Source of the DNA: Desulfobulbaceae bacterium
GTDB taxonomy: Bacteria > Desulfobacterota > Desulfobulbia > Desulfobulbales > Desulfobulbaceae
Assembly (NCBI GenBank): GCA_026987195.1
Contig: JALSNC010000013.1
Location: 1 to 64,000 of the forward strand
DNA length: 64,000 nucleotides
Direction of reading: 5' to 3'
Numbering within the stretch: the stretch's first letter is position 1; every line of letters starts with the position of its first letter. The notes below the pieces were generated by a model. The model was not told where the DNA came from. It did not search any database and was given only the letters and a program-made list of their open reading frames with translations. Of the stretch, positions 21,880 through 37,795 are shown piece after piece. The position numbers and the translations under genes were made by a program.

Positions 21880-23157
21880 ATGACAGCCAGCATTGACTTC
21901 AACCGCCACCCCTGCTTCAACGCCAAGGTCAAGGGACAGTATGGCCGGGTCCACCTGCCGGTGGCGCCGAAGTGCAATATCCAGTGCAACTACTGCAACC
22001 GCAAGTACGACTGTGTCAACGAATCCAGGCCCGGTGTGACCAGCACTGTACTCACCCCTGCGCAGGCCCTGCGCTACATGGGCAAGGTGCTGGAAAAGGA
22101 GCCCAGGATATCGGTGGCCGGCATTGCCGGCCCGGGCGACCCGTTCGCCAATGCGGAAGAGACCCTGGAGACCATGCGCCTGATCCGGAAAAACTTTCCG
22201 CAAACCATCCTCTGCCTGGCCTCCAACGGCATGGACCTGGCGCCGCACGTTCCGGAACTGGCAGAGATCGGGGTCTCCCATGTCACGGTGACCGTGAATG
22301 GCGTTGACCCGGAGGTCACCGCCCGGATCTACTCCTGGGTCCGCGACGGCAAGATCCTCTACCGGGGCGTCCAGGGTGCGGAACTGCTGCTTGCCCGCCA
22401 GACCGCCGCCATCAAGGCCCTCAAGCAACACGGCATCACGGTCAAGATCAACACCATTGTCATCCCGGGCGTCAACGACCACCATATCATGGAGGTGGCA
22501 AAGACCATGCAGGAGCTGGGGGCCGATCTGCTCAACTGCATGGCCATGTTTCCCAACGCCGGCACCCGGTTCGAGGACATCGTCGAACCGTCCCGATCCG
22601 AGATGGCCGAAATCCGCAACCAGGCCGAAGCGTTCCTGCCCCAGATGCGTCACTGCACCCGCTGCCGCGCCGACGCCGTCGGCCTGCTGGACGAGGACCG
22701 CACCGACGAGATGCGGGGCTGCCTGTCCGCATGCGCCAGCCTCCCCTCGACCACGGAAATCGCCAGGCCCTACGTGGCCGTGGCGACCCTGGAAGGCGTG
22801 CTCGTCAACCAGCATCTCGGCGAGGCGACCCGGTTCCAGGTCTGGAAGGAGGATGGCAACGGCGGCTACGGCCTGGTGGAAGAACGGCCGGCCCCGCCAC
22901 CGGGGGGCGGCGTGCGGCGCTGGCAGACCATCGGCAGGATCCTGGGCGACTGCCGCGCCATCCTGGTCTGTGATCTCGGCGAAACCCCGGGAAGAATACT
23001 GAAGGAAACAGGGATCCGGCCAATCACCATGACCGGCTTCATCGAACAGGGCCTGAGGGCGGTCTACACGGGCAAGGGACTGACCAGCCTGCAGGCAAGG
23101 ATGCGCAAATGCGCCTCCAAGGGCGCCTGCGCCGGTGGTGGTGGCGGCTGCGGCTGA
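21880..23157 (+). CDS. nifB: FeMo-cofactor synthase NifB (radical SAM core plus NifX-like domain)
   Basis: Radical SAM enzyme that inserts carbide and fuses two Fe4S4 clusters into the NifB-co precursor. The length is 425 residues. The SAM cluster motif CNIQCNYC is at residues 32-39, followed by the NRKYDC motif; the conserved GPGDPFAN, HVTVTVNGVDPE and the C-terminal CxxC (RHCTRCRADA) of NifB are intact. From about residue 290 there is a NifX/NafY-type domain (VAVATLEGVLVNQHLGEA). The last residues form a Cys/Gly-rich tail. The ATG at 21880 is supported by AAAGGAG; an upstream in-frame start at 21844 is less likely. No sigma54 site was found directly upstream, so it is probably read from the nifE promoter. 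Confidence 0.96.
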   Translation: MTASIDFNRHPCFNAKVKGQYGRVHLPVAPKCNIQCNYCNRKYDCVNESRPGVTSTVLTPAQALRYMGKVLEKEPRISVAGIAGPGDPFANAEETLETMRLIRKNFPQTILCLASNGMDLAPHVPELAEIGVSHVTVTVNGVDPEVTARIYSWVRDGKILYRGVQGAELLLARQTAAIKALKQHGITVKINTIVIPGVNDHHIMEVAKTMQELGADLLNCMAMFPNAGTRFEDIVEPSRSEMAEIRNQAEAFLPQMRHCTRCRADAVGLLDEDRTDEMRGCLSACASLPSTTEIARPYVAVATLEGVLVNQHLGEATRFQVWKEDGNGGYGLVEERPAPPPGGGVRRWQTIGRILGDCRAILVCDLGETPGRILKETGIRPITMTGFIEQGLRAVYTGKGLTSLQARMRKCASKGACAGGGGGCG

Positions 23158-34430: not shown

Positions 34431-34500
34431 TGCCTCGCCCGATTCCCGCAAACCGCGTGGCGGGCCGCAGGGTCCCGCCACCACCGGAAGGACAGTGATC

Positions 34501-35652
34501 ATGATCCTCCCTTTTCCCGAGCGCGGCAGCCGGCAGCCGCCGCAGGTGGACTGGCTGCCGCTGCCCCTGGCACCCCGGGCCAACACCCGGATCCGCTTTG
34601 CCGCCACCGGCACCAGACCGATGCCGCCGGAACAGGCCATGGAATGGCTCGCCGACCTGCAGGCCCGGAGAAACTCCATTGGCGGGATCGACATCCATGG
34701 GCCGGGGGATGCCCTGGCCGAACCGCGGCAACTGTTCCATTTTCTGGATCTGTTCCGCCGCAGGCAGCCGGACCTGGCCATCCGCCTGACCACCAGCGGC
34801 CTTGGTTCCGCGGCCCTGGCTTCACGCCTGGCAGATAGTGGCGTCAGCGAGGTGGTCCTGCAGGTGGACGCGGTGCAGATCGATATCATCCAGCGCCTCT
34901 ACGCCTGGATCAGGCCCGGACGCAGGACCATTCCCCTGGCTCAGGCTGCGGCGCAGCTGGCAAGGGAACAGGCCGACGGCGCCAGGGCTCTTGCCCGGGC
35001 AGGCCTGGTGGTTCGTGTCACGACCACGGTCTACCCGGGGTTCAACGACTCCCACGTGGCGGAGATCGCCCGCAAGATGGCATCACGGCAGGTGACATCC
35101 ATGATGGTACTGCCCTTTACCGGTGCCGCACCCGAGGCTGCGGCCGAAAATGACTGTCCGCTCCCCTGCGACACCATCACCCTGGCCAGGGCCCGGCGCC
35201 AGGCGGCCGATCACCTGGCCCTGACCGAGACGCCTCCGGAGGCACCCGAAGCGGTAAACCTTGTGCCCCTTCGGGAGCATGGCCTGCCCGGCCCCACCGA
35301 CCAACGCCCCCACGTGGCGGTGGCCAGTTCCAACGGCATGGACATCGACCTGCACCTTGGCCAGGCCGCCAGGCTGCTGATCTATGGCCCGAGGGAGGAT
35401 GGCCTTGCCTGCCTGCTGGAGGCAAGGACCGTGGCACCGGTACCCGCCGGGGTGGCGCGCTGGCAGCATCTGGCCGACAGTTGCCTGAAGGACTGTTTCG
35501 CCGTCCTTGTGGCCAACGCCGGAGAGGCGCCGAAAAAGGTTCTTGCCGGCCTCGGCATCAGGGTACTGGTGTGCCCTGACAACATCGAGGGCACGGTGGA
35601 TGTCCTCTTTGGCGGCGGCAAGAAGAAAAAACCCGGGCAACAGCCCAGCTAA
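34501..35652 (+). CDS. NifB/NifX-like paralogue without radical-SAM cysteines
   Basis: 383-residue protein aligned over its whole length with NifB of this window: PGDALAEPRQL against GPGDPFAN, VSEVVLQVDAV against VSHVTVTVNGV, RVTTTVYPGFNDSHVAEIARKM against KINTIVIPGVNDHHIMEVAKTM, and a C-terminal NifX domain (VAVASSNGMDIDLHLGQAARL). The three cluster cysteines of NifB (CxxxCxxC) are replaced by Ala27, Ile31 and Ala34 in APRANTRIRFAATG, and the later NifB CxxC is gone. It cannot be a radical SAM enzyme. Expression right after nifK, with GGAAGGA before the ATG, suggests a carrier or chaperone for FeMo-co or its precursor, like NifX/NafY. This role is inference. Confidence 0.85.
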   Translation: MILPFPERGSRQPPQVDWLPLPLAPRANTRIRFAATGTRPMPPEQAMEWLADLQARRNSIGGIDIHGPGDALAEPRQLFHFLDLFRRRQPDLAIRLTTSGLGSAALASRLADSGVSEVVLQVDAVQIDIIQRLYAWIRPGRRTIPLAQAAAQLAREQADGARALARAGLVVRVTTTVYPGFNDSHVAEIARKMASRQVTSMMVLPFTGAAPEAAAENDCPLPCDTITLARARRQAADHLALTETPPEAPEAVNLVPLREHGLPGPTDQRPHVAVASSNGMDIDLHLGQAARLLIYGPREDGLACLLEARTVAPVPAGVARWQHLADSCLKDCFAVLVANAGEAPKKVLAGLGIRVLVCPDNIEGTVDVLFGGGKKKKPGQQPS

Positions 35653-35660
35653 TATCCAAA

Positions 35661-36021
35661 ATCTGCGCCCCTGAGAGCGCTTACACCATTGTGGCCTGAC
35701 AAACCGATGGTTAGCCACCCCGTGAGGGGTTTCGTGAACTGTGACCAGTGAACAGGCTCCACCAGCCTCAGCAACCGATGAATCAGCATGCCCGCAGGAG
35801 CGGGCACAACAACCGATGAAAATCAGGCAGAGGGTATCCTGTTCCACCGCAGAGCGGTGCAACGAGGTCGAGGTGCGGCAGATCGCTCTGCCCCCGTGCC
35901 GGTCGCCTGTATCGCCGGGAGTTCAATCTTCATCTCCCGCCGCAGGCAGCACGAAGATTCCCGGCCCCCGGAACCTGGCACCTGGTACCTGATACCTGGT
36001 ACCTGACACCTGGCACCTGGC
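35661..36021 (+). repeat. Repeat island: R1 fragment, R5 and R6 heptamers
   Basis: 35661-35732 is the end part of R1 in reverse (CCCTGAGAGCGCTTACACCA and CCGATGGTTAGCC). 35781-35965 is the longest R5 copy (GCCCGCAGGAGCGGGCACAAC through CCGCCGCAGGC). 35973-36021 are seven 7-base units of the type ACCTGGC/ACCTGGT/ACCTGAT. They fill most of the 405 bases between the NifB-like gene and the ferredoxin gene. Confidence 0.78.
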
Positions 36022-36057: not shown

Positions 36058-36363
36058 ATGGCCATACCCGAGCGGCAGATCATCCTCTGCCAGAGTTTCC
36101 GCGTCGCCGGAGACAAGAAAGGACTCTGCCACAAGCAGACCGACGGTTTTCTGCAGTACATCGAGGAGGAGGTGCTTGACCGTGGCCTTGACTGCCTGGT
36201 CAGTGCCACCACCTGTCTCAAACAATGCGAAAAAGGCCCGGTGATGGTGATCCAGCCGGAAAACTGGTGGTTCGGAGGCGTGGACTCCGAGGATGCCATC
36301 GATGCCATCCTCGACGGCCTGGAGGATGGGGCTCCGGCCCGGGACTACCTGCTGCCGGGCTGA
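36058..36363 (+). CDS. Thioredoxin-fold [2Fe-2S] ferredoxin of the nif region
   Basis: 101-residue Shethna-type ferredoxin. Cysteines at about 11, 24, 53 and 57 (ILCQSF, GLCHKQ, TTCLKQCEKGP) are the ligand pattern of thioredoxin-like 2Fe-2S ferredoxins, and PVMVIQPENWWFGGV is their conserved end. Related proteins are found next to nif genes in Azotobacter (FeSI) and others, where they have been linked to nitrogenase assembly or protection. AAAGGAGAG precedes the ATG. The tandem R6 heptamers end 37 bases upstream of the start codon. Confidence 0.88.
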   Translation: MAIPERQIILCQSFRVAGDKKGLCHKQTDGFLQYIEEEVLDRGLDCLVSATTCLKQCEKGPVMVIQPENWWFGGVDSEDAIDAILDGLEDGAPARDYLLPG

Positions 36364-37011: not shown

Positions 37012-37461
37012 ATGAACACGACCGTACAGATGGATATCAGGCCCATGCCGGAGATCAGCGGCTGGCAGGAATTTCTCAGGCAGGGTGAGGGATACCTGAA
37101 GACAGCCTCCGGCGGTTATGCCCGGCGCAGGAAGATCTTCACCCCGGAGATCCTCTACAACCTGGTGGCCATGGCCATTGAAAAATTCGCCATGGCCGCA
37201 CTGATGCGCCATGGCGCCCTGCCCTACAACCACACCATGGCGGATCTCGTCGAGGCCATGGACGCGCTCTTTCCCGATGCCATCGACGAGTTGCGGGAGG
37301 GGCTGCTGGCACTGGACCGCTACCAGGAGATCTGCGCCCTGGATACCTATTCCATCAGACCACCCTCCATGGAGGAGGTGCCGGCCATGCTGGACCTGGC
37401 CCGGCGCCTGAAACAACTGCTGGAGAATGTGGACCAGGACCGCGGTACGGGCAATGCCTGA
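37012..37461 (+). CDS. HEPN-like protein of the nif region
   Basis: 149-residue all-alpha protein. The pattern GYLKTASGGYARRRKIFTPE, then LVAMAIEKFAMAALMRHG and PYNHTMADLVEAMD is that of HEPN domains, with the helix-pair core and a His-containing LV segment. The RxxxxxxH RNase motif is not clearly kept. HEPN proteins often act with nucleotidyltransferases, but none is adjacent. GAGGAGAG is 5 bases before the ATG. It is followed by the next small gene after 25 bases, so it is part of the downstream nif unit; the function there is unknown. Confidence 0.65.
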   Translation: MNTTVQMDIRPMPEISGWQEFLRQGEGYLKTASGGYARRRKIFTPEILYNLVAMAIEKFAMAALMRHGALPYNHTMADLVEAMDALFPDAIDELREGLLALDRYQEICALDTYSIRPPSMEEVPAMLDLARRLKQLLENVDQDRGTGNA

Positions 37462-37486: not shown

Positions 37487-37795
37487 GTGGCACTGAGAAA
37501 ACTCGGGGTGGTGAAGACCATTGTCGAAACAGTGGGCATGGACATCGGCCACGTCTGGGATGACCTGGTCTTTCTCAACCACACCGGTCTGATACTGCAG
37601 TTTACCGATCAGGAGGACACCATGCGGATACACAGAAATTACGAAGGGGAATCATCCATCCTCGAACGGGCGATCGACCTGCTCAAGGAGACAGCGCGCC
37701 TCTATGCGATGACCTTTCTTGACGGCGAGGAGTTCCGTATCTCCCAGGGGGACGATGAAGAGCTGCGCCTGGAATTCCTCGGCACCAACCGATGA
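37487..37795 (+). CDS. Small nif-region protein of unknown function
   Basis: 102-residue acidic protein that I do not recognise. It starts at a GTG with a very good AAGGAGG 7 bases upstream; the frame is open from 37427. It is predicted mixed alpha/beta, with LVFLNHTGLILQFTD in the middle and SILERAIDLLKETARLY near the end, and has no cysteine, transmembrane segment or signal peptide. Its position between the HEPN-like gene and the Nif11 gene, and a terminator 4 bases after the stop, suggest that it ends the operon. Confidence 0.65.
   Translation: MALRKLGVVKTIVETVGMDIGHVWDDLVFLNHTGLILQFTDQEDTMRIHRNYEGESSILERAIDLLKETARLYAMTFLDGEEFRISQGDDEELRLEFLGTNR

What the first reader, a model, noticed from the sequence alone, without database searches (positions are those of the whole stretch)
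34501..35652. NifB paralogue without the radical-SAM cluster, in the nifHDK operon
A full-length relative of the NifB in the same window (nifB at 21880) keeps the barrel strands and the NifX-like end but has Ala, Ile and Ala at the three cysteines of the CxxxCxxC motif, and has also lost the later CxxC. The frame is intact, has a good ribosome site, and follows nifK by 70 bases, so it is kept by selection and not a pseudogene. No separate nifX or nafY is present in the window. A catalytically dead NifB used as a carrier of NifB-co/FeMo-co or as a NifDK chaperone would be a new kind of nif accessory protein.
Basis: partly seen in the sequence, partly recalled or inferred. Interest (0 to 1): 0.78.

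Follow-up and report, generated by a model that had tools for sequence, protein, structure and literature searches.

The report
Catalytically dead NifB paralogue after nifK
Beside the normal NifB enzyme that starts building the nitrogenase cofactor, sulfate-reducing bacteria of the Desulfobulbus group carry a second, enzymatically dead copy placed directly after the nitrogenase genes; it keeps the conserved histidine that holds the cofactor in related carrier proteins, so it is probably a cofactor carrier or assembly helper rather than an enzyme.

Summary
Window 34501-35652 encodes a 383-aa full-length NifB paralogue (28-30% identity to the NifB in the same window). Ala27, Ile31 and Ala34 stand at the three radical-SAM cysteines. 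HPC, CxxCRxDAxG and the loop with the next NifB cysteine are also gone. It is neither a pseudogene nor a sequencing error. 77 distinct relatives were read and none has CxxxCxxC; dN/dS is about 0.08-0.40. In the class, 143 of 258 genomes carry it and 136 of these also have NifB. It forms one clade apart from NifB (100/100 support). In all 38 named contigs it lies directly after nifK and, apart from one contig that ends first, before a [2Fe-2S] ferredoxin gene. The same order holds in three families of other classes. Every member keeps the His (H285) that aligns with NifX H35 and NafY H121, the experimentally known NifB-co and FeMo-co ligands. Constraint is stronger on the NifX-like domain than on the dead barrel. 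One relative (G206) has lost the barrel and keeps only a leader and the NifX-like domain. Best reading: a NifX/NafY-type cofactor carrier or apo-NifDK chaperone built on a dead NifB. The client is inferred from gene position only. Several relatives also have a stand-alone nifX-like gene next to nifB, so this is not simply a nifX substitute.

The parts
34501..35652 (+). NifB2: NifB paralogue without any NifB cluster cysteine (383 aa)
   Evidence: 77 distinct family members without CxxxCxxC
34486..34492 (+). ribosome-binding site ggaagga, 8 bases before the ATG
   Evidence: sequence
34543..35220 (+). dead radical-SAM-type barrel (about residues 15-240); A27, I31, A34 at the Cys positions; 'GPG' kept
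35305..35616 (+). NifX-like domain (residues 269-372), most conserved part of the protein
35353..35355 (+). codon of H285 (DLHLG), aligns with NifX H35 and with the His of NafY core 1p90
   Evidence: alignment; invariant in A2 and 77/77 by motif
35494..35496 (+). codon of C332 (KDCF), aligns with NifX C82
33057..34430 (+). nifK, immediately upstream
36058..36363 (+). thioredoxin-like [2Fe-2S] ferredoxin gene that follows nifB2 in nearly all relatives
   Evidence: NF041612 E 1.3e-15 but below cut-off; synteny
21880..23157 (+). the true nifB of the same cluster, all NifB motifs present
   Evidence: TIGR01290 385 bits, over cut-off; motif test

Best explanation
NifB2 is a pseudoenzyme derived from a duplicated two-domain NifB. 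[quoted passage not shown] Inferred: it cannot make NifB-co. It binds an 8Fe-type nitrogenase cofactor (FeMo-co or NifB-co) through H285 of the NifX-like domain and holds or hands it over during maturation of NifDK, in the manner of NafY/NifY, with the dead barrel as scaffold or docking part. It is made in step with NifDK because its gene sits in the nifHDK operon.
For: H285 aligns with NifX H35 (chain 9ian) and with the His of NafY core 1p90. It is invariant in the aligned family and the HLG-type motif is present in 77/77 members. H35 and H121 are the known ligands (PMC13128457; PMC8496260; PMC11938142). dN/dS is generally lower in the NifX-like domain than in the barrel (window vs L037 0.15 vs 0.47), a bias that true NifB does not show. 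The gene directly follows nifK in all 38 named contigs and in three families of other classes. Presence goes with nifB: 136 both, 16 nifB only, 7 nifB2 only, 99 neither of 258 genomes. G206 keeps only leader plus NifX-like domain (144 aa) at the same site. A separate nifX-like gene next to nifB in several of the same genomes leaves the NifDK side as the free role.
Against: No biochemistry exists. The partner is inferred from gene order alone. The PF02579 score of the window protein is below the gathering cut-off (22.5 vs 26.3). If the barrel is the NifDK-docking part, its loss in G206 is hard to explain. Some near-complete nif-bearing genomes lack the gene (G039, G200, G044, G045), so it is not essential everywhere. 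NifX itself can bind FeMo-co in vitro, so the ligand His does not tell which cofactor is bound.
Confidence: 0.55

Rival explanations
1. NifB2 is a NifX-type shuttle that takes NifB-co from NifB to NifEN.
For: Same NifX-like domain and ligand His. The window genome has no detectable nifX. The barrel could interact with NifB or receive its product.
Against: Many relatives have both NifB2 and a nifX-like gene next to nifB. The gene sits with nifDK, not with nifENB.
Confidence: 0.2
2. NifB2 is a placeholder or regulator (NifY/NafX/AnfO-like, or a partner of NifB) that prevents premature or wrong cofactor insertion without carrying the cofactor itself.
For: NifX-fold proteins with such roles are known (AnfO, PMC11938142; NifY and NafX suggested as placeholders, PMC13128457). 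Same operon position logic.
Against: NifY and NafX lack the ligand His, while NifB2 keeps it in every member.
Confidence: 0.17
3. NifB2 is still an enzyme or SAM-binding protein with a different, unrecognised cluster.
For: The GPG motif and N182 of the barrel are kept. Some members have N-terminal CC or GCGC cysteines.
Against: No cysteine is conserved in the barrel; P0001 has none before residue 218. One member has lost the barrel entirely.
Confidence: 0.05
4. Decaying nifB duplicate, chimeric assembly or sequencing error.
For: It evolves faster than nifDK (about 40-66% vs about 80-95% identity).
Against: 77 distinct members without the motif, dN/dS well below 1, fixed synteny.
Confidence: 0.01

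Closest known systems
NifB, two-domain bacterial type (radical SAM + NifX-like)
   Same: Full-length homology, barrel fold, domain order, 28 columns conserved in both
   Different: All conserved NifB cluster cysteines, HPC, TxTxN, Cx2CRxDAxG and the C45 loop lost; separate clade; below the TIGR01290 cut-off (111.7 vs 343.65 bits)
NafY / NifY / VnfY (apo-NifDK binding, FeMo-co carrier)
   Same: Two-part layout with C-terminal NifX-like domain; ligand His as in NafY; gene beside nifK (NifY position in Klebsiella and Azotobacter is from general knowledge)
   Different: N-terminal part is a dead NifB barrel, not the small helical N-NafY domain; no DIMCO_N hit in 57 relatives, but that search had no positive control
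NifX / VnfX (NifB-co carrier to NifEN)
   Same: NifX-like fold and His35 equivalent
   Different: NifX has no barrel; NifB2 coexists with a nifX-like gene in many genomes
'NifB' annotations lacking Cx3Cx2C that PMC5715403 set aside as NifX
   Same: NifX domain present, Cx3Cx2C absent
   Different: That paper read them as mis-annotated NifX; here a full NifB-type barrel is present. Whether its excluded set held NifB2 proteins was not checked

Membership tests
NifB (catalytic) | Cx3Cx2C radical-SAM motif | tested here: not met
   0 of 77 NifB2 vs 34 of 34 NifB
NifB (catalytic) | HPC and Cx2CRxDAxG motifs (fingerprints of PMC5715403) | tested here: not met
   HPC in 1 of 77 (only L116), Cx2CRxDAxG in 0 of 77; both in 34 of 34 NifB
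NifB (catalytic) | TxTxN motif | tested here: not met
   1 of 77 vs 31 of 34 NifB
NifB (catalytic) | AGPG motif | tested here: inconclusive
   GPG kept in 76 of 77, AGPG in 12; window has HGPG
NifB (catalytic) | Score over the NCBIfam TIGR01290 cut-off | tested here: not met
   111.7 bits vs 343.65
NifB (catalytic) | NifB barrel fold | tested here: met
   model matches NifB crystal structures best
NifX/NafY cofactor carriers | NifX-like domain (PF02579) | tested here: met
   34 of 34 members match at E <= 0.01, though the window protein is below the gathering score; NifX and NafY core are the two best PDB matches of the domain
NifX/NafY cofactor carriers | Cofactor-ligand His in H-[FL]-G | tested here: met
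   H285 aligned to H35, 77 of 77
NifX/NafY cofactor carriers | NafY-type N-terminal domain (PF16844) or stand-alone NifX size | tested here: not met
   N-terminal part is a barrel; exception: the barrel-less G206 gene, 144 aa
NifX/NafY cofactor carriers | Binds NifB-co or FeMo-co | not testable with these tools
   needs anaerobic biochemistry

The most novel reading that the evidence does not exclude
A widespread, previously unrecognised class of nitrogenase assembly factor: a pseudoenzyme made by killing the radical-SAM site of a duplicated NifB and recruiting it, within the nifHDK operon of Desulfobacterota, as the cofactor carrier/chaperone that serves NifDK.
Probability: 0.45. Interest if true: 0.75.

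Novelty: new variant of a known kind. Interest (0 to 1): 0.63.

Why it matters
How FeMo-co is delivered to apo-NifDK outside Azotobacter and Klebsiella is largely unknown, and the known carrier NafY has a restricted spread (general knowledge). A conserved dead NifB beside nifK would be a candidate carrier for a large group of marine and sediment diazotrophs, an evolutionary link between the maturase NifB and the NifX-type carriers, and a possible part for engineered nitrogenase pathways. It also warns that 'NifB' hits lacking the cysteines are not always mis-annotated NifX, and that gene-content screens for nifB may count the wrong gene.

Tried and rejected
Pseudogene, frameshift or assembly error: rejected by dN/dS, synteny and 77 members without the motif. 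NifX substitute: weakened, because nifX-like genes coexist with it in many relatives. Relatives on plasmids: only three Nitratidesulfovibrio plasmid records matched; the two opened carry a true NifB and lack NifB2. NafY N-domain in relatives: no hit, but the search had no positive control. Literature searches found no description of a NifB paralogue of this kind, in an open-access library only. Phyla outside Desulfobacterota were covered only by one pattern scan for close relatives, so wider occurrence is not excluded.

Full report
Observation. The ORF at 34501-35652 is intact (383 aa), begins 70 bases after nifK with a good ribosome site, and aligns with the window's NifB over its whole length (E 5e-43). 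C12 (HPC), C45 with its loop, and C259/C262 are also gone. It scores 111.7 bits on TIGR01290 against a cut-off of 343.65, while the window's true NifB passes.

Family. Relatives are 62-66% identical in the genus and about 37-52% elsewhere in the class. The named contigs are mostly labelled Desulfobulbaceae, Desulfocapsa, Desulfurivibrio or simply Deltaproteobacteria, with Desulfopila and Desulfogranum among the named species. In the class, 143 of 258 genomes hold NifB2 and 152 hold NifB; 136 hold both, 16 only NifB, 7 only NifB2, 99 neither. Some NifB-only genomes are essentially complete (G039, G200, G044, G045), so the gene is dispensable in some lineages. Outside the class it occurs in three families of the phylum: f29 (6 genomes), f54 (G296, G543) and f91 (G608). 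None of 77 distinct members has Cx3Cx2C, against 34 of 34 NifB.

Gene order. In all 38 named contigs nifK precedes nifB2; in nearly all of them a [2Fe-2S] ferredoxin gene follows, and in those where it was not seen close by the contig usually ends first or the tblastn hit was merged with the neighbouring gene. The order nifK-nifB2-ferredoxin holds in the other classes too. In several genomes without nifB2, nifK is followed directly by the ferredoxin gene (L151, L152, L155, L156).

Tree. NifB2 is one side of a single branch from all NifB (100/100, 100% of bootstraps). The f29 and f54 proteins lie nearest to NifB, and L116 of f54 is the only one that still has HPC. The f91 protein and its NifB both nest among Desulfobulbales sequences, which suggests transfer of the operon. 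The tree holds only Desulfobacterota sequences, so the date of the duplication is not fixed.

Selection. Pairwise dN/dS of NifB2 is 0.08-0.40. In nearly all pairs it is lower in the NifX-like domain (0.05-0.28) than in the barrel (0.07-0.47). True NifB shows no such consistent bias. This points to the NifX-like domain as the functional core. G206 supports this: at the same site, just after nifK, it has a 144-aa ORF that keeps the leader (MQIIPFP...) and the NifX-like domain with His and Cys but no barrel. It is a single draft genome, so it should be confirmed.

Mechanism. The NifX-like domain matches NafY core 1p90 and NifX 9ian best in the PDB, with H285 on NifX H35 and C332 on NifX C82. H35 holds NifB-co in the NifENX structure (PMC13128457), H121 holds FeMo-co in NafY (PMC8496260), and in NifX His35 but not Cys82 is needed for binding (PMC11938142). 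NifY and NafX lack that His; NifB2 never does. The AlphaFold model is confident (pLDDT 89.6) and matches the NifB barrel. Cofactor binding and the NafY-like client are inferences; the loss of the catalytic residues, the conservation of the ligand and the gene order are shown.

Prior knowledge. PMC5715403 dropped 'NifB' entries that lacked Cx3Cx2C and judged them to be NifX. NifB2 differs from that reading because it has a full barrel. No paper found describes it, within an open-access library.

Noticed in passing
window 23135-23157; L138 1405-1779 (-), L141 1435-1902 (-): Same-genus relatives have a nifX-like gene between nifB and modA; it is missing in the window and no TIGR02663 hit exists in the whole draft genome.
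   Followed up: partly
window 37012-37461 and 37487-37795: Two small proteins (149 and 102 aa) with no Pfam or NCBIfam hit are conserved beside the nif cluster in many Desulfobulbales.
   Followed up: no
L154 2884-3318: Barrel-less NifB2 (leader plus NifX-like domain, 144 aa) directly after nifK in genome G206.
   Followed up: partly
window 35660-35830 and about 35975-36020: Repetitive sequence between nifB2 and the ferredoxin gene; a similar stretch seems to lie in contig C126 (L004), and a short CCTGGTACCTG-type tandem repeat is next to it.
   Followed up: no
L149 (Nitratidesulfovibrio vulgaris DP4 plasmid): nif operon nifDK-ferredoxin-nifEN-nifB without nifB2, followed by an annotated Drt2 antiviral reverse transcriptase.
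   Followed up: no
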